DNA from: a virus
Strand: one strand, 5' to 3'
DNA length: 64,000 bases
Virus record (IMG/VR): IMGVR_UViG_3300037628_000643
Location: 1 to 64,000 of that record
The first letter of the stretch is position 1. Each line of letters starts with the position of its first letter. Both the position numbers and the translations under genes were made by a program. Positions 6,590 to 35,238 of this stretch are shown in pieces. Below the pieces are notes generated by a model, which had not been told where the DNA came from, did no database searches, and saw only the letters and a list, made by a program, of their open reading frames with translations.

Positions 6590-7270
6590 TTATTTATTTC
6601 CTCTATGCCTAAATGATTGTTTCAAATCGAATCCAGCAGATAATATCTTGTTCTCATTTGGAATGCAACCTATTTCTTCATATTTTGCGAGAGTTGATTC
6701 AAGGTACATTTCGATTTCTTGATGAATCTCCGTGGCATTCATTATTGTTGAGAAGTTAATATCCTTCAGTACGGGGTATTTTGTAATATATGTATTTATA
6801 CGCCTAACCTCTACAAGCAATACTGCTGCATCATAACGCTTAAACAGACTGTGATCTGTAATATTTATTTTTTTATCGTACTGTTTTACAGATTTTGCCT
6901 TTCTCCTCGCCAAGCTTCTTTTTAGATACCTTGGATTGGAATGTACAGACTGGCGCTCATATTCATCAAAAACATCATTAAATAGAACCTTGTCATTATT
7001 AAATCCGCAATACAACCATGCATCCTCTTTTATCGTAGGGACAGCTCTATACCATTCTCCACAAACACCTACAAAGTATGAGACGTCTTTTTCAGTGAAC
7101 ATACTCTTGTTGTTGCTAGCATAATTTCCTACAAGGAAAAAAGTGTCAGATGATGTGTCGAGTATAAATTGCTCTTCTTTTCGAGTAAATACCTTCTTCG
7201 GATCAAACCCGTAAGCGTGAAACGCATAATCATAATAATCACGCTCTTTTGATATTAGTCTGTATGTCAT
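6590..7270 (-). CDS. Conserved phage protein of unknown function, 226 aa
   Basis: The N-terminus (ISKERDYYDYAFHAYGFDP) and the ending AGFDLKQSFRHR resemble a family I have seen often in phages of gammaproteobacteria, with no known function. The middle has VGVCGEWYRA, typical of that family, followed by a basic segment (RSLARRKAKS). No catalytic motif is visible. The start follows GGAAGGAATAATTC. Confidence 0.7.
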   Translation of the reverse strand: MTYRLISKERDYYDYAFHAYGFDPKKVFTRKEEQFILDTSSDTFFLVGNYASNNKSMFTEKDVSYFVGVCGEWYRAVPTIKEDAWLYCGFNNDKVLFNDVFDEYERQSVHSNPRYLKRSLARRKAKSVKQYDKKINITDHSLFKRYDAAVLLVEVRRINTYITKYPVLKDINFSTIMNATEIHQEIEMYLESTLAKYEEIGCIPNENKILSAGFDLKQSFRHRGNK

Positions 7271-7273
7271 GAA

Positions 7274-7507
7274 TTATTCCTTCCAGTTTATTACTGTACA
7301 TGACTCAGTTGGTAACGGTACACTAAACCCATATTGCTCCAACCATGAAATGATTTCTTTTCTTACAGAGTCATTTATCACAATGACAGCGAAAAAGTCA
7401 CCGTCATCCACCGCTTGTTTAATAGAATGCTCTACTCGATTTTTTTCAATCGAGAAAATATCATTGGATAGCTTACTTTGGACTCTCGCCTCTTGTGCAT
7501 TAATCAT
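7274..7507 (-). CDS. M-NA-EAR family protein, 77 aa
   Basis: I set the start at 7507 (MINAQEARVQ), where ATGA overlaps the preceding stop and a GAGGAAAAGTT site lies upstream. MINAxEAR, then a helix ending IEKNRVE, then strands with ISWLEQYGFSV match the gene at 8292 (MINAKEAREN ... IRDWLEGLGY). The C-terminal half of 7504 is related. Similar small proteins are common in phages; function unknown. Confidence 0.7.
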   Translation of the reverse strand: MINAQEARVQSKLSNDIFSIEKNRVEHSIKQAVDDGDFFAVIVINDSVRKEIISWLEQYGFSVPLPTESCTVINWKE

Positions 7508-8016
7508 AACTTTTCCTCGCAATCATCAGGCCACGTTATTTTAATGGCGTACCCTTCGTCTTGGTGGTGCATATAACTAAAGCACCTATTGCCAAACTCA
7601 CTAACTGAAACTCCGTACCCGTTCTTGACAAGCTCATCCGTGACCCGCTTGATAACCCATGAGATAGATTTTCTTGAGATAACTCTAGAAGGCTCAGCCC
7701 ATCCACGATACAAAGAATCATAAGTAAGAAATCTCACCTCAGCTATATTACCGCCATCTTTGATTTCTTTATTGATCTTATTGTATGCCTTGTCGATATA
7801 CTCCTTGCATTGCTCCCTTGTTAACTCCCAATCACTTCTAACCTTACACATAGACTTGTTAGCTTCAATCGCAGTTGGTTTTACTGGTAATGATATGATT
7901 GGGATTATTAGCTTCTTTTCTTCTTGCTGGATATTATTCTTATTGTCCTTTCTAAAAAGAAAATACAACCATACTACAGCAAAGGTATATCCCATAATGA
8001 AAGATAGCGTTTCCAT
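7504..8016 (-). CDS. Membrane-anchored M-NA-EAR-like protein, 170 aa
   Basis: Residues 3-21 (TLSFIMGYTFAVVWLYFLF) form an N-terminal anchor. After a basic linker, the C-terminal 105 residues repeat the helix-then-strand layout of the M-NA-EAR proteins beside it (TREQCKEYIDKAYNKI ... ELVKNGYGVSV ... IKITW). It may be a membrane-tethered version of the same domain. Start after AGGAGGAGTT. Confidence 0.6.
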   Translation of the reverse strand: METLSFIMGYTFAVVWLYFLFRKDNKNNIQQEEKKLIIPIISLPVKPTAIEANKSMCKVRSDWELTREQCKEYIDKAYNKINKEIKDGGNIAEVRFLTYDSLYRGWAEPSRVISRKSISWVIKRVTDELVKNGYGVSVSEFGNRCFSYMHHQDEGYAIKITWPDDCEEKL

Positions 8017-22573: not shown

Positions 22574-22794
22574 TAAGTGAAGCTGCATTTTGGACAAGGG
22601 CATGATATCCCATGAATACAAGCTCCTCCGCCATTAACCTTCATTCCAGATCCATGGCACTCTGGACAGGCATCATGAAGGCACTGTTCTTGTCGGTCAT
22701 TATTTAGCATGCATGGACATTTATCTGCGCCATTTTGAGACCCAATACAGAAGCATGGGTTTGCAGCCTTGGTATTATTTGATGTGTAGTGCAT
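22573..22794 (-). CDS. Cys-rich zinc protein, 73 aa
   Basis: Ten Cys in patterns CFCIG, KCPCML, CPECHGSG and CPCPKCSFT, the third being DnaJ-like. Start after AAGGAGGGTTA. Probably binds at least two zinc ions. Partner unknown. Confidence 0.65.
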   Translation of the reverse strand: MHYTSNNTKAANPCFCIGSQNGADKCPCMLNNDRQEQCLHDACPECHGSGMKVNGGGACIHGISCPCPKCSFT

Positions 22795-23168
22795 TAACCC
22801 TCCTTAATCGTCATATCCGAAGTCTCCATAGAGAATGTTTCGCAGCGTGTAATTTTAAATCCTGCAGAACCATCCATCTTGGGCCATCCTTCCGTATCAC
22901 AATTATTGTACTTATCATCATAATCAAATGCACTAACAACACCAAATGTATTGTAGTCATTGCAATATGCGATATAAAAAGCTTCTCGTGCTAGCATTTT
23001 TAAGACTGCATTCAGAACTGAGCCCTCCTTTGTTACGCGATATTTATCATTACCCCAGAAGCTATTAATCTCGTGAAGCATTTCTCCTGTAGCGATGTCA
23101 TGATCAATTTCGATATGAATTTCAGCTTTCCAATCCCAGTCAATTTTGTATTTTTTAATGTTGCTCAT
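22794..23168 (-). CDS. Hypothetical protein, 124 aa
   Basis: Starts MSNIKKYKID after AAGGAGAAAAATAA, just downstream (in the leftward direction) of two palindromic elements. Contains EIHIEIDHDIATGEMLHEIN and YNTFGVVSAFDYDDKYN. The first part resembles a family of phage proteins with strand-helix units. Function unknown. Confidence 0.65.
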   Translation of the reverse strand: MSNIKKYKIDWDWKAEIHIEIDHDIATGEMLHEINSFWGNDKYRVTKEGSVLNAVLKMLAREAFYIAYCNDYNTFGVVSAFDYDDKYNNCDTEGWPKMDGSAGFKITRCETFSMETSDMTIKEG

Positions 23169-23189: not shown

Positions 23190-23256
23190 TTAACATGCTT
23201 TATATGTCACATTAACTATGTTTTTGGCACTTAATATGCCTTATATGGCATATTAA
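23190..23256. repeat. Tandem 26-bp palindrome-like operator elements
   Basis: TTAATATGCC-TTATAT-GGCATATTAA at 23231-23256 is a perfect 10-bp inverted repeat. A degenerate copy with four substitutions lies at 23190-23215. The two start points are 41 bases apart, close to four helix turns. The perfect copy overlaps the stop of the RlaP-like gene. They lie upstream of 22794-23168 in its transcription direction and look like binding sites for a dimeric protein. Confidence 0.55.
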
Positions 23257-24308
23257 CCCCACATAATCTCTTGACAATCCATTAGCACTTTTGTAGCTAG
23301 ATTGACATTTGGCTTCTTTCGAAGATCAGTCTTTTTGTATAAGACTTCACGAATGTATTTATCTTTACTTTCTGCATACTTGATTAGCTCATTATAAGTC
23401 CATGCGCCATTTCTGATGCTTAATAACTCTTCTGCATCTGGTCGCTTGACAATGACTCCATCTCCTTTAAGGATTTCTTCCCCCATTTTTAAAAGGCGAA
23501 CTAAGTGCATTCCGTGCTTGAAATCGACGCCGAACTTTTCTTCAAGCTCTGCTCGCACTGGATTTCGATTTTTCTTCCACTCCCAGTAGCCACGATGACG
23601 CTCTTTGGCAAATTTCCATTCTTCTTCGTTGTATTTGATAATAAACTGAAGCTCGCCTTTTGGCTCCTCATTCTTTAGTTGCTTTATAGAAATATTAAAA
23701 TCCCCATCAACTGTAAGCGCATTTGGATCACCGCCACTAAAGTATGCGCCGAAGATATTTCCTCCAAAATGAACCAGCCTAGTGTTTGATAGATATGACA
23801 TATTGAAGTTGCTATTGAAAGATTTCGCTCCTGTAAAGTTCTGCACAAGCTTAATGTAATTACTTCTTAGTGGAGCCTCAACTGGTTCAGGAGAATTAAT
23901 CCATTTTTTATGTCCCTTAATCCGTTTCAGTTGTGATGATGCATATCCACTAAACGTAAATGCTACCTTTGACGACAGTAAGTCTTCACGATGACTAAGA
24001 AGATAATTAAACGCCTCGTCATTCGTCTGTATCAGAGAGCTATCATCAACCCATAATGACTCAAGGATATTCGGATTGGCGCCAAGATACAAATCCATAA
24101 AATGCGTCAGCTCAAGAACCTTTCCATCCTCTTCATCTGGTAGCGTTATTTCTCGAACATTGTGCCAAGGTGTTAATGCGTACTTTTTTGGCGCACAAAA
24201 GATCCCTCGAATATCAACATCGGATGTCGGAAGGTTGGTTCCATACGCCAATGATCCAGCATAGTGTTTAACTATAATGTTGTTGTCGTTCAATTCATGA
24301 GCTTGCAT
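23253..24308 (-). CDS. RlaP-type nucleotidyltransferase, 351 aa
   Basis: The N-terminus holds the nucleotidyltransferase active site: A-GSLAYGT at 17-24, then SDVDIRGIF at 29-37, where Asp30 and Asp32 would bind metal. This matches the RlaP family (DNA polymerase beta superfamily) known from phages and proposed to act in RNA repair. The rest is helical with several charged segments. The ATG follows GAGAGGGTAGCAAA and overlaps the PTH2-like gene by 19 bases, so both are made together. The RNA substrate is unknown; a tRNA-end function is inferred from the neighbours. Confidence 0.8.
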   Translation of the reverse strand: MQAHELNDNNIIVKHYAGSLAYGTNLPTSDVDIRGIFCAPKKYALTPWHNVREITLPDEEDGKVLELTHFMDLYLGANPNILESLWVDDSSLIQTNDEAFNYLLSHREDLLSSKVAFTFSGYASSQLKRIKGHKKWINSPEPVEAPLRSNYIKLVQNFTGAKSFNSNFNMSYLSNTRLVHFGGNIFGAYFSGGDPNALTVDGDFNISIKQLKNEEPKGELQFIIKYNEEEWKFAKERHRGYWEWKKNRNPVRAELEEKFGVDFKHGMHLVRLLKMGEEILKGDGVIVKRPDAEELLSIRNGAWTYNELIKYAESKDKYIREVLYKKTDLRKKPNVNLATKVLMDCQEIMWG

Positions 24309-24835
24309 TTTGCTACCCTCTCTGCTAGTTCGATTTCGTATTCATTAAGATCGTGAGTGAATGCCGTTCCGCAATAATCTGGATTATCTTTACTGTGCTT
24401 CGCGTGAGCGCTTCTCTCCTTAACAAAATTAAATATCTCCTCTGGAAGAATGACGCCAACATTAGTCAGTGCTCCATTTAGAGCGTCTTCAGTTTCTTTG
24501 AAGCATGCAAAGGGATATTCTCCTCCATAAACCTCAACTCTTTGAAGAAGATCTAAAGTATCATTTAGATCTGAAGAGTATCCGCCATTAACAATAATAG
24601 TAGTCTTATGATTTTTAGCCCAATCGAAAAGCATTTCTTGTTGCGGACTTCTGTTCTGTGTAATCTTATATCCCATACTCTCAATACTTTCAATAGCAAC
24701 GAAATCTGCATATGTCGGCTGGTATTTCAAAAACATTTCAACCGTCGTATGCTGGCTCTGTATCCCTGCTCCTATCCCGCTTATGTACATGTTCTGAAAA
24801 AAATATGCTCTTAATTCACTATTAGTTGAACTCAT
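24290..24835 (-). CDS. Peptidyl-tRNA hydrolase 2-like protein, 181 aa
   Basis: The segment YISGIGAGIQSQHTTVEMF near 17-35 resembles the GKIAAQ-x-x-HA region of PTH2, FDWAKNHKTTIIVNGGYSS near 69-87 is in the place of its central strand and helix, and GALTNVGVILPEEIF near 115-129 resembles its final strand. PTH2 frees tRNA from peptidyl-tRNA. Similar proteins are widespread in phages without assigned function. The match is by pattern, so the family call is moderate. It overlaps the CCA enzyme by 14 bases. Confidence 0.5.
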   Translation of the reverse strand: MSSTNSELRAYFFQNMYISGIGAGIQSQHTTVEMFLKYQPTYADFVAIESIESMGYKITQNRSPQQEMLFDWAKNHKTTIIVNGGYSSDLNDTLDLLQRVEVYGGEYPFACFKETEDALNGALTNVGVILPEEIFNFVKERSAHAKHSKDNPDYCGTAFTHDLNEYEIELAERVAKCKLMN

Positions 24836-26045
24836 TTTCTTTAAACCTCCTTACCTTTTTAATTCGTTCTTGGCGCAATAACTCGCCAAACAATTTGCCG
24901 GAAATCAACCTTGCACCCAAGTTATCGATTGTCTCTTCTTCATTTTCGATTGATGCTAAATACGCACCGCGTAAAAAATTCCTTTGAGGATAACTTTCAA
25001 CCCTTGGCAATCTGCCCATAGCATCACAATGGCAGCAATCAATGAAATCTTGAAGCAACGATTTGTTTGAGTATGCACCTACTCTCTGTAGTAAGTCAAC
25101 TATTTTTTTAGCGCGCATATCCATAATTGCATGCATGCGTGTGTGCTGCTCGCAAACAAGCATTGCTAGTTCACGATAGCTTTTTGGCACAGATAGTCTG
25201 TCACAGAAATCTTTTACAGCAGATAACCCCGCTTGGTCATGACCATAGAGATTTCCTCTTTCGTTGTGACAAATTGGTTTACCAGTATCATGTAGAAGGG
25301 CAGCCCACTTAACCATTGGCGATAATCCGTAATAAGAACATCTCTCCAGAACCATCAATGTATGCGTAAGAACATCTTTTTCGGCATGATGCTCTTTGGG
25401 TTGAGGAATGTTATCGCAAGCCCATAATTCTTTAAACCAAATATGCTCACCTGCTTTGTGTAAAAACTTAAAAAACAAATGAGAATAAGGCTCGCTTAAT
25501 GCCTTCTCGGTCTCTGCCCACACCCTTTCTTTAGTTAGGTATTCCCAGTCACTAGAGTCGATAATCTGACGGCATAAAGACATTGTTTCGGGCGCTACAG
25601 TCCATTCAGGGCCAAAGCGAGCCAAGAACCTTGCTACGCGCAAAACTCTAACTGGGTCTTCTAAAAATGCATCGCTAGTGTGTCTCAGTATTTTATTTTC
25701 GATATCTACCTGACCGTCAAACGGATCAATGATAGTGCCTTCAAAATCCATGGCGATACTGTTGATGGTTAAATCTCTACGCTGTAAATCTTCAATGAGA
25801 GTGACACCTTTTGTCTCTACGGAAAAGCCACCATAGCCATCTCCTGTTTTTCTCTCAACGCGAGCCAAAGCATACTCATCTCCAGTCTGCGGATGAAGGA
25901 AAACCGGAAACTCAGATCCAACCAGCTTGTAGTCCATAAACTCCATCAATTCAACTGAGGAATCTACCACAACATAATCAATGTCTTTTGGCTCGATCCC
26001 CATAATGGAGTCTCTGACATAGCCACCGACTTTGTATTCTTCCAT
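24822..26045 (-). CDS. cca: tRNA nucleotidyltransferase (CCA-adding) with HD domain, 407 aa
   Basis: GGYVRD at 7-12 with DIDYVV (Asp21, Asp23), RRDLTINSIAMD at 89-100 and the following EDPVRVLRVARF region are the class II tRNA nucleotidyltransferase signature. Metal-binding LLHDTGK sits at about 250-256 in an HD domain, as in the E. coli enzyme, whose length (412) is nearly the same. It adds or repairs the 3' CCA of tRNA; the HD domain has phosphatase or phosphodiesterase activity in the E. coli protein. Start after GGAGGAGGATTAGTC. Confidence 0.9.
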   Translation of the reverse strand: MEEYKVGGYVRDSIMGIEPKDIDYVVVDSSVELMEFMDYKLVGSEFPVFLHPQTGDEYALARVERKTGDGYGGFSVETKGVTLIEDLQRRDLTINSIAMDFEGTIIDPFDGQVDIENKILRHTSDAFLEDPVRVLRVARFLARFGPEWTVAPETMSLCRQIIDSSDWEYLTKERVWAETEKALSEPYSHLFFKFLHKAGEHIWFKELWACDNIPQPKEHHAEKDVLTHTLMVLERCSYYGLSPMVKWAALLHDTGKPICHNERGNLYGHDQAGLSAVKDFCDRLSVPKSYRELAMLVCEQHTRMHAIMDMRAKKIVDLLQRVGAYSNKSLLQDFIDCCHCDAMGRLPRVESYPQRNFLRGAYLASIENEEETIDNLGARLISGKLFGELLRQERIKKVRRFKENEFN

Positions 26046-26047
26046 GA

Positions 26048-26215
26048 CTAATCCTCCTCCTTTTCAACCAAGTACGCAGGAACGCTGCAGCAAAGCACGC
26101 AAGCATGGTTGTTTGTAATGTGATTTTTAAATGTTAGCTCACAATCATCCTTGCAGTCGATACACAAATAATCTGCATTAAAAATAATCTCTGATAGTTT
26201 TTCTTGATGATTCAT
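26048..26215 (-). CDS. 55-residue Cys/His microprotein
   Basis: Starts MNHQEKLSEI by ATGA overlap with the gene before it and ends two bases before the CCA-adding enzyme. CIDCKDDC and NNHACVLCC supply zinc ligands in a treble-clef-like arrangement. Coupling links it to the tRNA operon; function unknown. Confidence 0.6.
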   Translation of the reverse strand: MNHQEKLSEIIFNADYLCIDCKDDCELTFKNHITNNHACVLCCSVPAYLVEKEED

Positions 26216-26373
26216 TCCAACACCCCTGTATCCCTAAGAAGACTTACCACACCCATCATGTTTGCTCCTAGTGTCCACCCGTTTACTGCAGCTAAAGCGC
26301 TTTTTTTATTCTGCACACAAATAACCATTAACACTCCAAATACAACGCACATAATTATTCTAAATATAAGCAT
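26212..26373 (-). CDS. Small membrane protein, 53 aa
   Basis: Starts MLIFRIIMCVVFGVLMVICV, a single span, at the second of two ATGs (best spacing after AGGAGGTGA). The remainder is amphipathic. The stop overlaps the next start. Function unknown. Confidence 0.6.
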   Translation of the reverse strand: MLIFRIIMCVVFGVLMVICVQNKKSALAAVNGWTLGANMMGVVSLLRDTGVLE

Positions 26374-26406
26374 CATTCACCTCCTATTTATTGATTATTT
26401 TAAATG

Positions 26407-26607
26407 TTATGCAATTCTATAACCCGTATGCCCACAACCTTCACAATGAATTCTCTTTTGTGGAGGGTACGACATTAATGTTTGGTCTGGATTCGTATCG
26501 AACAGCTCATTACTACAATTCGGGCATCCAAGTCCATTTGGTTTTGGGTCGCTAGGATTTTTGTACATTTTCGCTCTTTCTTCATTGTGCTCGACTAATG
26601 ATTTCAT
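26407..26607 (-). CDS. Zinc-ribbon protein, 66 aa
   Basis: CPNCSNEL near residue 29 and CEGCGHTGYRIA at the end form a Cys4 ribbon. Starts by ATGA overlap with the transglycosylase gene upstream. Function unknown. Confidence 0.65.
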   Translation of the reverse strand: MKSLVEHNEERAKMYKNPSDPKPNGLGCPNCSNELFDTNPDQTLMSYPPQKRIHCEGCGHTGYRIA

Positions 26608-27143
26608 TGAAAATGCAACCTCTCATTGTTGTTAGTTTCACCCAAAGTACCACAATCCCTTAAGACAATCAAGCGTTTTCTTATGTCTTCGCTATAATTT
26701 AATCCTTTTTCACTTAGCCAGTCATTCCCTTCATTGTAACTAGATCTTACGAACTTCCAATTACCTTTGTGGCGCTTATACCAGTACTTAAGCTCAAGAA
26801 TAGCTAGGTGCAGAGATAGGTTGTCATTATCAACTAGTTGCTGAGCAAGCACATTCCGATTGAAAGAAGTATCTTTTCGCTCAAGCCTAGTTAAGCTGTA
26901 CTTCAAGTGGTTTTGCGCTATTCCAGCCGCTGGGTCACGGATGTTTATCTTCCATAACCCAGCGTTAGACTCCTTCCACACAATAGCTGCTAGCGTGTAA
27001 CCCATATCATGCGGCTCCCCATAATGGTAAGACCAGCGCAGAGTATCAATCTGTGCCGTGGAGAGTTTATCGACATCTTTGCATGTATATGCAGAAGAAA
27101 ATGAGCTTATTGTTATTGTTATTAGTGCAATAAAGAATTTCAA
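26604..27143 (-). CDS. Secreted lytic transglycosylase-like protein, TTG start, 179 aa
   Basis: A signal peptide at residues 1-18 ends near SSA-YT. The mature part has AAIVWKESNAGLW with Glu58 as expected catalytic acid of SLT/goose-lysozyme-like folds, then DPAAGIAQNHLKYSL, a family hallmark, and KGNWKFVRSSYNEG near the end. It would cleave peptidoglycan from the periplasmic side. Translation starts at TTG after AGGAGGGTAGCAG. Its place in the early operon, far from the lysis genes, suggests a role other than final lysis. Confidence 0.7.
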   Translation of the reverse strand: MKFFIALITITISSFSSAYTCKDVDKLSTAQIDTLRWSYHYGEPHDMGYTLAAIVWKESNAGLWKINIRDPAAGIAQNHLKYSLTRLERKDTSFNRNVLAQQLVDNDNLSLHLAILELKYWYKRHKGNWKFVRSSYNEGNDWLSEKGLNYSEDIRKRLIVLRDCGTLGETNNNERLHFQ

Positions 27144-28908: not shown

Positions 28909-29841
28909 ATGAAAGCAAAAGATATAAAAGTAGGCGATAGATTTAGTAAGTGGCTCGTAACATCTGGGCCAAATGTAGTGAAATCTATAGACCCTAATGG
29001 AAAAAAAAGAAATAGAACGAACTGGGATTGCTTTTGTACCTCATGTGGTACAACAAACAAGAAGGTCGTAGCCACCGACCTAGTCGCTGGAAAATCAACA
29101 AAGTGCTTGGGCTGTATGAAAAAACACAACAATATCCACGAAGGATTTGTTAGTAACGATTGGATCGTCAAAAGAAGAAGTGCTCCTCCTAAGAGCAGAT
29201 CTCATTGGCTTTGCAGATGCAAGTGCGGAAAAGAAGTTGATGTATATGCCTCTGACTTGAATAATGGCAAATCTAAAAGATGCCTAGAGTGTGGCTTTAA
29301 GTCGAACATGAAGCATCCGGCTGTAGTGGTAGGTAAAAGGTACAACAAGTGGACTGCAATAAAGAGATGTACAAGAGATAGGCAGGAAGCCTATGAGTGC
29401 GAATGCGTGTGCGGATACAGAAAAAAGATACTTGGTAGTGTACTTAGATCTGGAAAATCAAGGCAGTGCAGGCGTTGTGCGAGTATTCATATCCATGGGT
29501 TTAGACGTAGCGATTTTATATTAGCTGCAAAGCGAAAAAATATAAAAGATAAGTGCATGCTATACATAATTGAGTGCTCGTCTGGAGACGAACTATTTTA
29601 TAAGATAGGAATAACAACTAATACTATAGAAAAAAGATATCCAACACACAATACAATGCCATACAAATACACTATTAAGTACAGTTTTTTTTCGTCAGCG
29701 TCCATTATATGGGATCTAGAAAAAGAGCTTCATAAGAATCATAAGGAATCTGGATTTCATTATGTCCCTATAATTGTATTCGGAGGTATGTATGAATGCT
29801 TCTCATCTTTACTTCCCGATATCGAGAGTATGCTAAAATAG
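28909..29841 (+). CDS. GIY-YIG-type endonuclease with three zinc repeats, 310 aa
   Basis: Three N-terminal repeats of about 60 residues each contain a strand, a W-x-C-x-C-x-CG-like Cys cluster, an L-x-x-GK-S-x-x-C block and a closing Cys pair (CFCTSCG, CRCKCG, CECVCG). The C-terminal 90 residues form a GIY-YIG nuclease of the T5orf172 kind: LYIIECSSG, YKIGITTNTIEKRY with the catalytic Arg, and IWDLEKELHKN with the catalytic Glu. The repeats probably recognise DNA. It sits just before the terminase gene, as a free-standing homing endonuclease would. Confidence 0.75.
   Translation: MKAKDIKVGDRFSKWLVTSGPNVVKSIDPNGKKRNRTNWDCFCTSCGTTNKKVVATDLVAGKSTKCLGCMKKHNNIHEGFVSNDWIVKRRSAPPKSRSHWLCRCKCGKEVDVYASDLNNGKSKRCLECGFKSNMKHPAVVVGKRYNKWTAIKRCTRDRQEAYECECVCGYRKKILGSVLRSGKSRQCRRCASIHIHGFRRSDFILAAKRKNIKDKCMLYIIECSSGDELFYKIGITTNTIEKRYPTHNTMPYKYTIKYSFFSSASIIWDLEKELHKNHKESGFHYVPIIVFGGMYECFSSLLPDIESMLK
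29831..29839 (+). promoter_or_regulatory. Extended -10 promoter TGCTAAAAT
   Basis: Overlaps the last codons of the GIY-YIG gene; its transcript would start just before the terminase ATG. A GGCTC-TTTAG-GAGCC hairpin at 29841-29855 overlaps the ribosome site. Confidence 0.5.
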
Positions 29842-34203: not shown

Positions 34204-35238
34204 GTGGCAGGATATATAGTAAATGTAGGAGATGTTTTTAGCGAACTAACCGTAATAAGCGGGCCAATAAAAACACCAAAAGGAAAGCGATGGAAGGTGA
34301 GGTGTAGTTGCGATAATGAGTTTGAGGTAACTAACTCATCATTGGGCGCTGGACGTATTACTAAGTGTAGGTATTGCGCTAACGGAAAGACACCTCCAGT
34401 AAAAACAGGTGATATCTATGGTGATCTTGAAATACTTGAAAAATCTGAAAGAAATGGACGCAAGTACTTTATTGTCAAATGCCTTAGATGTAACGAGACA
34501 ACATTTGAAATTAGAGAAGATTCAATCAAAAGATCTAAGAGGCAGTCTTGTGCGCCTTGTGCAAGAACCAAAGGAGAGCCAACTAAAGTAGGCGACATAT
34601 TCGGAGTTCTTACCGTGACTGCTTTTTTGGGGCTTAGTGGGCTTGGTAAAAAGATGTGGTCTTGCGTTTGCGACTGCGGAAAAACCAAAGATTATATTGA
34701 TAATAATTTAAGGTCTAGAGCTGCTGACGCTGAGTGTAGCTGCAAAACATCACTTGGCGACCCAACAAGGGTAGGGGATGTTTACGGAAATTTAACCGTC
34801 CTTAATATATTTAATAACGAAAAAAGATGGCGCAAAGCTACATGCAAATGCACTTGCGGTAGCGTGAGCGACAGAGATCTTATAAGCCTAAGAAATGGAG
34901 CTGCAAAAAGCTGCGGATGCCTAGGCAACACCTATAGCCGAAGTGATTTTATTAAGCTTTCCTCTAAAGGTATCGCCACGCTATATACGATAAAGTGTGA
35001 GGGTAACAATGAAAAGTTTTTCAAGATAGGAATAACAACAAGAACGGTAAAGAAGAGATTCAGTGCGAAGGAATTGATGCCTTATAAGTACAAAATAGTG
35101 AAAGAAACAAAAGGAGAGGCCGGTTACATATGGGATCTAGAAAGAGAGCTTCATAAGAAGCATAGTAATCATAGCTATTCTCCTAAAATAAAGTTCAATG
35201 GCTATACTGAATGCTTTAGTGAAATCATAGACATATAA
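34204..35238 (+). CDS. GIY-YIG-type endonuclease with four zinc repeats, GTG start, 344 aa
   Basis: Four repeats open with VGD-x-F/Y-x-x-L-T/E-V and carry Cys clusters (CSCDNEF, CLRCNET, CVCDCGK, CKCTCGS), each closed by a later Cys pair. The C-terminal nuclease shows LYTIKCEGN, FKIGITTRTVKKRF with catalytic Arg, and IWDLERELHKK with catalytic Glu. It is the closest relative of 28909, with one more repeat. The GTG start follows AAGGAGAATTGA. Inserted between scaffold and capsid. Confidence 0.75.
   Translation: MAGYIVNVGDVFSELTVISGPIKTPKGKRWKVRCSCDNEFEVTNSSLGAGRITKCRYCANGKTPPVKTGDIYGDLEILEKSERNGRKYFIVKCLRCNETTFEIREDSIKRSKRQSCAPCARTKGEPTKVGDIFGVLTVTAFLGLSGLGKKMWSCVCDCGKTKDYIDNNLRSRAADAECSCKTSLGDPTRVGDVYGNLTVLNIFNNEKRWRKATCKCTCGSVSDRDLISLRNGAAKSCGCLGNTYSRSDFIKLSSKGIATLYTIKCEGNNEKFFKIGITTRTVKKRFSAKELMPYKYKIVKETKGEAGYIWDLERELHKKHSNHSYSPKIKFNGYTECFSEIIDI

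What the first reader, a model, noticed from the sequence alone, without database searches (positions are those of the whole stretch)
23253..26045. Three-gene tRNA maintenance operon: CCA-adding enzyme, PTH2-like, RlaP-type nucleotidyltransferase
The three genes overlap (14 and 19 bases) so their products are made together. Each points at tRNA: restoring the 3' CCA, releasing peptidyl-tRNA, and nucleotide transfer in an RNA-repair family. Host defences that cut or trim tRNA (anticodon nucleases, toxins) are common, so this could be a phage counter-measure. Two coupled microproteins (26048, 26212) precede it. I know of each family in phages, but not of this combination as a described system.
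Basis: partly seen in the sequence, partly recalled or inferred. Interest (0 to 1): 0.75.

Follow-up and report, generated by a model that had tools for sequence, protein, structure and literature searches.

The report
Phage three-gene tRNA-end repair operon
A phage carries three overlapping genes that probably rebuild damaged ends of transfer RNAs; the same trio recurs in distant phages, and its middle protein, shaped like a known tRNA-cleaning enzyme but lacking that enzyme's usual catalytic residues, also sits beside other tRNA-repair genes elsewhere.

Summary
In detail: three minus-strand genes overlap by 14 and 19 bases and encode an E. coli-type CCA-adding enzyme (HD motif intact), a Pth2-fold protein ("MID", phrog_3668), and an RlaP-family nucleotidyltransferase, in a 104-kb phage record. 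The trio is conserved in the same order and strand in phages of other types: Vibrio 495E54-1, Rheinheimera Barba19A, Vequintavirinae, one IMG/VR contig and one contig binned in a Spirochaetia MAG. Identities co-vary (r 0.91-0.94 without Barba). Barba carries a different RlaP subfamily in the third slot.

In other phages MID adjoins Thg1, Pnk plus an RNA ligase, or a calcineurin-type phosphatase; a known tRNA/RNA-repair partner lies near it in 19 of 34 lineages.

Best reading: a tRNA-end repair cassette, probably for host tRNAs damaged by defence toxins (inferred). Both phage tRNAs already encode CCA, so tRNA maturation is unlikely. A phage repair set of RlaP, CCA enzyme and PTH2 was already predicted (Iyer 2021); the operon and the divergent MID family appear new.

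The parts
24822..26045 (-). CCA-adding enzyme (class II tRNA nucleotidyltransferase, E. coli Cca type with HD domain), 407 aa
   Evidence: PF01743 8e-19, PF01966 HD 2.5e-8; phrog_2244 4e-129; NCBIfam PRK10885 'multifunctional CCA addition/repair' full length 415.5 bits, cut-off 451; DxD D21/D23, RRDLTINSIA, EDPxR and HD residues H228, H252, D253, H301, H305, D341 invariant in 4 phage homologs; PDB CCA enzymes 4.6e-18
24290..24835 (-). MID: Pth2-fold protein of family phrog_3668, 181 aa; overlaps the CCA gene by 14 bases
   Evidence: phrog_3668 1.5e-35; AlphaFold2 pLDDT 83.4, pTM 0.79; Foldseek top 5 PDB matches all Pth2, prob 1.00, TMt 0.61-0.65; Pfam PTH2 sub-threshold hits fall on MID in 7 relatives; G24, Q26, H29, G85, E114, T124 invariant in 52
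23253..24308 (-). RlaP-family Pol-beta nucleotidyltransferase, 351 aa; overlaps MID by 19 bases
   Evidence: PF10127 6.3e-12 over cut-off; phrog_388 3.5e-68; catalytic pattern G18 S19...D30, D32...E66 invariant in 16; model pLDDT 84.5 matches only the Pol-beta NTase core in PDB
26048..26215 (-). 55-aa ORF just upstream of the CCA gene; membership doubtful
   Evidence: Position; no match in phages at E 1
26212..26376 (-). 54-aa ORF with one hydrophobic segment; membership doubtful
   Evidence: Position, 4-base overlap with the next ORF; no Pfam or PHROG family

Best explanation
The trio is a phage tRNA-end repair cassette. The CCA enzyme re-adds lost C, C or A residues to the acceptor end, and its HD domain probably clears 2',3'-cyclic or 2'-phosphate ends. 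MID, a Pth2-fold protein, binds the acceptor end and most likely removes or handles the acyl or peptidyl group on damaged or blocked tRNA so the end can be rebuilt. RlaP adds nucleotides to a second kind of trimmed end, which in this phage could then be sealed by its own Rnl2-type ligase, helped by a calcineurin-type phosphatase, both near the right end of the genome. Shown: the genes, their coupling, folds and conserved active-site residues, conservation of order, co-inheritance, and swapping of partners. Inferred: the substrates, the direction of each reaction, and the purpose, which is most likely to keep translation going when host toxins cut or cap host tRNAs.
For: Same order and strand, mostly overlapping, in Vibrio 495E54-1, Barba19A, an IMG/VR contig and a Spirochaetia-MAG contig; same order with small inserted ORFs in Vequintavirinae. 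Of 20 phages tested only the window's has the Gp13-like capsid, so the trio is shared across different backbones. Mirror-tree r 0.91-0.94 without Barba. Third slot filled by another RlaP subfamily in Barba, 24% identical (PF10127 hit). KLEP7 lacks MID but has a Pth2 with the canonical residues three genes upstream of its CCA-RlaP pair. MID adjoins or precedes Thg1 in six loci, Pnk + ligase in one, a NinI-like phosphatase in jumbo phages. 19 of 34 MID lineages have such a partner within 4 kb. Thg1-linked phages tested lack RlaP and trio phages lack Thg1. Own genome: Rnl2-type ligase and phosphatase adjacent. Its two tRNAs encode CCA.
Against: MID lacks Pth2's Lys18 and Asp86 equivalents in all 52 members, and the window member alone has Gly where others have His or Gln, so hydrolase activity may be lost or different. 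Profile-profile comparison of MID with phage Pth2 was weak. No RNA ligase of three families in Barba19A, 495E54-1 or G013, so RlaP cannot always work with a phage ligase. RlaP's substrate cannot be read from structure: PDB matches stop at the NTase core. 15 of 34 MID lineages show no known partner nearby. No experiment links the trio to defence.
Confidence: 0.62

Rival explanations
1. General translation support: the phage keeps the host tRNA pool charged and intact late in infection, with no specific defence system as opponent.
For: Many relatives carry 18-54 tRNA genes; CCA turnover and peptidyl-tRNA release are ordinary housekeeping.
Against: The host already has a CCA enzyme and Pth. Barba19A (trio) and G013 (CCA-RlaP pair) have no tRNA genes. 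Partners such as Thg1, Pnk and ligase point to repair of damage rather than turnover.
Confidence: 0.25
2. Maturation of phage-encoded tRNAs: the CCA enzyme finishes tRNA transcripts that lack encoded CCA.
For: Most trio phages carry tRNA genes, PVP-SE1 24.
Against: Both tRNAs of this phage encode CCA; Barba19A has the trio and no tRNA gene, 495E54-1 has one. Does not explain MID or RlaP.
Confidence: 0.06
3. Toxin neutralisation on proteins: the RlaP-like enzyme nucleotidylates a host toxin, as MNT antitoxins do, and MID is its adaptor.
For: Pol-beta NTases with that role exist; Foldseek lists MNT antitoxin structures weakly.
Against: RlaP is a separate Pfam family with RNA-repair linkages; linkage of the trio and of MID to CCA enzyme, Thg1, Pnk and ligase favours RNA ends.
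Confidence: 0.07

Closest known systems
Jumbo-phage RNA repair / ribosome rescue set (RlaP, CCA enzyme, PTH2, Thg1, Rnl ligases, Pnk; Iyer et al. 2021, PMC7824862)
   Same: Same enzyme classes proposed to act together against tRNA-cutting defences; calcineurin- and HD-type phosphatases also mentioned.
   Different: Described as presence/absence in jumbo-phage genomes; not, in its text, as a coupled three-gene operon in a 104-kb phage. Its PTH2 probably corresponds to the canonical Pth2 found elsewhere in such genomes, not to MID (inference).
Peptidyl-tRNA hydrolase 2 (Pth2: S. solfataricus 1xty, human Bit1 1q7s)
   Same: Fold and topology; Gln and His of the first helix and a conserved Thr retained.
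   Different: GKGK-type lysine absent, catalytic Asp replaced by invariant Glu, longer C-terminal part; found almost only in phages.
RlaP nucleotidyltransferase (PF10127; T4 NrdC.11-like per the KLEP7 annotation)
   Same: Family score over cut-off, catalytic GS/DxD/E intact.
   Different: Operon partner is CCA enzyme + MID rather than an RNA ligase; the ligase lies about 77 kb away and was not found in some trio phages.
E. coli Cca (PRK10885, multifunctional CCA addition/repair)
   Same: Full-length match including the HD domain.
   Different: Phage branch, 38-50% identical to other phage Cca; 415.5 bits, just below the equivalog cut-off of 451.
T4 Pnkp-Rnl1 tRNA repair
   Same: Presumed goal of reversing host tRNA damage (established knowledge).
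   Different: Here end rebuilding rather than simple healing and sealing; Pnk directly beside MID was seen only in L104/L027.

Membership tests
CCA-adding enzyme, E. coli Cca type | Class II NTase motifs (GG..RD...DxD, RRDxTIN, EDPxR) | tested here: met
   Invariant in alignment; PF01743
CCA-adding enzyme, E. coli Cca type | C-terminal HD domain with metal residues | tested here: met
   PF01966 34.7 bits over 22; H228, H252, D253, H301, H305, D341 invariant
CCA-adding enzyme, E. coli Cca type | NCBIfam equivalog cut-off | tested here: not met
   415.5 of 451 bits; so a close relative, not the equivalog
CCA-adding enzyme, E. coli Cca type | CCA addition to tRNA | not testable with these tools
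   Needs enzyme assay
Pth2 peptidyl-tRNA hydrolase | Pth2 fold | tested here: met
   Model pLDDT 83.4; PDB top five all Pth2
Pth2 peptidyl-tRNA hydrolase | Pfam PTH2 gathering score | tested here: not met
   No hit for the window protein; relatives 13-19 bits against 23
Pth2 peptidyl-tRNA hydrolase | Catalytic Lys (K18) and Asp (D86) of S. solfataricus Pth2 (own knowledge) | tested here: not met
   Position 22 is H, Q or G in 52 members; the Asp position is invariant Glu114; phage Pth2s keep both. Residue equivalence by my own sequence and secondary-structure register
Pth2 peptidyl-tRNA hydrolase | Hydrolysis of peptidyl-tRNA | not testable with these tools
   Needs assay
RlaP | PF10127 score and GS/DxD/E catalytic residues | tested here: met
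   46.1 bits over 23; invariant residues
RlaP | Linkage to an RNA ligase | tested here: inconclusive
   Rnl2-type ligase in the same genome but about 77 kb away; none found in Barba19A, 495E54-1, G013
RlaP | Nucleotide addition to cleaved tRNA | not testable with these tools
   Predicted only, also in the literature

The most novel reading that the evidence does not exclude
MID founds a phage protein family that has left Pth2 chemistry and become the shared hub of tRNA-end repair: a tRNA acceptor-end handler with a new active site (Gln, His, Glu, Thr) that partners interchangeably with 3'-end polymerases (CCA enzyme + RlaP), the 5'-end polymerase Thg1, or Pnk and ligase, giving phages a modular system against toxins that damage or cap tRNA ends.
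Probability: 0.35. Interest if true: 0.72.

Novelty: new variant of a known kind. Interest (0 to 1): 0.52.

Why it matters
Recent defence systems attack the tRNA acceptor end itself: toxSAS toxins pyrophosphorylate the CCA end and are implicated in antiphage immunity (PMC11559606), and TacT acetylates charged tRNA, undone by Pth (PMC9241777). A phage operon with a CCA rebuilder, a Pth2-like protein and an RlaP enzyme is a natural candidate answer. It gives a small, concrete set of genes, in phages that grow on E. coli K-12, with which to test whether phages repair tRNA ends and what the unassigned family phrog_3668 does.

Tried and rejected
Profile-profile link of MID to phage Pth2 with shallow alignments was not convincing; fold comparison carried the case. 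PDB sequence searches with MID and RlaP gave nothing. RtcB as the missing ligase: absent in all 20 records. An intron in the split RlaP gene of L009: no Rfam match. Microprotein conservation: none found. The genome-contig scan found one locus only, on a 17-kb MAG contig, so the MID family looks phage-restricted. The founding RlaP paper (Burroughs and Aravind 2016) is not in the library.

Full report
Observation. The record is a 104,021-bp virus contig. The first protein is a class II CCA enzyme of the E. coli Cca type with an HD domain; the NTase motifs and the HD metal residues are invariant among phage homologs. The third is an RlaP-family Pol-beta nucleotidyltransferase, above Pfam's cut-off, with its catalytic GS, DxD and Glu invariant in 16 relatives. 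The second has no Pfam or NCBIfam match and only an uninformative PHROG 'hydrolase' label. I call it MID.

Conservation. CCA, MID, RlaP occur in this order on one strand in Vibrio phage 495E54-1 (L002; its RlaP gene looks truncated), Rheinheimera phage Barba19A (L005), IMG/VR contig 3300038548 (L009/L061), a 17-kb contig binned with a Spirochaetia MAG (L108), and, with small ORFs inserted, in Vequintavirinae such as PVP-SE1, 4MG, Ro1 and Av-05. One contig has the order MID, CCA, RlaP (L066). Overlaps: window 14 and 19; L009 16 and 19; L108 13 and 19 if its RlaP starts at the in-frame ATG 7414. These three are also the closest to each other in CCA and RlaP. Pairwise identities of the three proteins correlate at 0.91-0.94 without Barba, as expected for co-inheritance. 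The comparisons are not phylogenetically independent, so these values are descriptive.

Not one phage lineage. The window phage has a Gp13-like major capsid protein found in none of the other 19 records examined; its terminase and capsid point to other phages than the trio does. Barba19A and PVP-SE1 carry different taxonomy lines.

Substitutions. In Barba19A the third slot holds a different RlaP subfamily, 24% identical to the window's but still matching PF10127. In Pseudaeromonas phage KLEP7 the CCA-RlaP pair lacks MID, and a small Pth2 (over the Pfam cut-off, keeping the Lys, Gln, His and Asp) lies three genes upstream. L036 has the pair with neither. These are single cases, but they suggest that position and function are under selection.

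MID. The AlphaFold2 model (24 rows, pLDDT 83.4, pTM 0.79) has Pth2 topology. The five best PDB matches are all Pth2 chains (E 7.7e-5 to 3.8e-3, prob 1.00, TM by target length 0.61-0.65), and the next match has prob 0.08. Pfam's PTH2 model gives sub-threshold matches that fall on MID in seven relatives. But over 52 members the position I align with Pth2 Lys18 is His (35), Gln (16) or Gly (the window only), never Lys, and the Asp86 position is an invariant Glu114; Gln26, His29 and Thr124 are invariant too. That Lys18 and Asp86 are catalytic in S. solfataricus Pth2 is from my own knowledge; the residue register rests on sequence and secondary structure. So MID has the Pth2 fold but fails the residue test for Pth2 membership.

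MID's other partners. Beyond the trio, MID is directly or closely followed by Thg1 in L069, L074 and L077, with Thg1 further downstream in L063, L072 and L064. In L104/L027 it is followed by a polynucleotide kinase and the start of an RNA ligase. In jumbo phages its start overlaps the end of a NinI-like calcineurin phosphatase gene, in several cases with a DUF7275/DUF7277 protein, NTase-like by my own reading, further up. At 60% identity the 52 MIDs form 34 lineages; ten have CCA within 4 kb, two the phosphatase, six Thg1, one Pnk-ligase: 19 of 34. The other 15 have no partner I recognised. Thg1-linked phages G019-G022 lack RlaP and the trio phages tested lack Thg1, which fits alternative polymerases serving one MID function. 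I did not run a random-gene control, so the strength of this linkage is a judgement.

Genome context. The window phage has two tRNA genes, Met(CAT) and Arg(TCT), both with encoded CCA, so the CCA enzyme is not needed to mature them. Barba19A has the trio and no tRNA gene. The phage also encodes a calcineurin-type phosphatase next to an Rnl2-type RNA ligase (L007 18079-19752, i.e. 102079-103752 of the record), so a heal-extend-seal route is available in principle. Ligases of three families were not found in Barba19A, 495E54-1 and G013, so the cassette can also work without a phage ligase. No promoter or terminator signal sets the trio apart; it is inside a long leftward array.

Mechanism and prior art. 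I favour tRNA-end repair: CCA enzyme for the acceptor end, MID for handling its acyl group, RlaP for a second trimmed end. Iyer et al. 2021 (PMC7824862) already propose that phages use RlaP, CCA enzyme, Thg1, ligases and PTH2 to reverse host attacks on tRNA; they describe genome-wide presence in jumbo phages. I found no paper describing this operon or the MID family in the library. Acceptor-end attack is a documented host strategy: toxSAS toxins cap the CCA end (PMC11559606) and TacT acetylation is reversed by Pth (PMC9241777). The link to any one defence is untested.

Verdict. A real, conserved cassette; new variant of a known kind. The most interesting part is the MID family, not the trio as such.

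Noticed in passing
L069 7528-8262, L074 7775-8701, L077 7528-8283 (also L063, L072, L064): Thg1 (tRNAHis guanylyltransferase, a 3'-5' polymerase) gene directly or closely after MID; these MIDs carry SSIQQGIQ instead of GIHAGIQ.
   Followed up: partly
L009 6423-8250 (L061): RlaP gene split by an ORF that looks like a GIY-YIG endonuclease (6941-7576) at the conserved KWI..P motif; no Rfam intron match.
   Followed up: partly
window 28909-29841 and 34204-35238: Two paralogous T5orf172/GIY-YIG-like proteins (35.7% identical over 207 aa), one overlapping the start of the terminase ORF, one between capsid genes.
   Followed up: partly
L007 18079-19752 (record 102079-103752): Calcineurin-type phosphatase (PrpA/PrpB- and weakly Pnkp-like) directly before an Rnl2-type RNA ligase, downstream of the two tRNA genes.
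   Followed up: partly
window 22794-23168: DUF2528 / lambda Ea10-like gene directly downstream of the trio, about 67% identical in DNA to lambdoid phages.
   Followed up: no
window 26604-27143: Lytic-transglycosylase-like protein (SLT just below cut-off, phrog_600) upstream of the trio.
   Followed up: no
L003 6001-7245 (KLEP7): CCA enzyme gene annotated as two pieces in one reading frame separated by a stop codon.
   Followed up: no
L016 4028-4936: DUF7275/DUF7277 protein with a Pol-beta-like start (GSTAYKEY..ESDLDL) upstream of the phosphatase-MID pair in jumbo phages; possibly another uncharacterised nucleotidyltransferase family.
   Followed up: no
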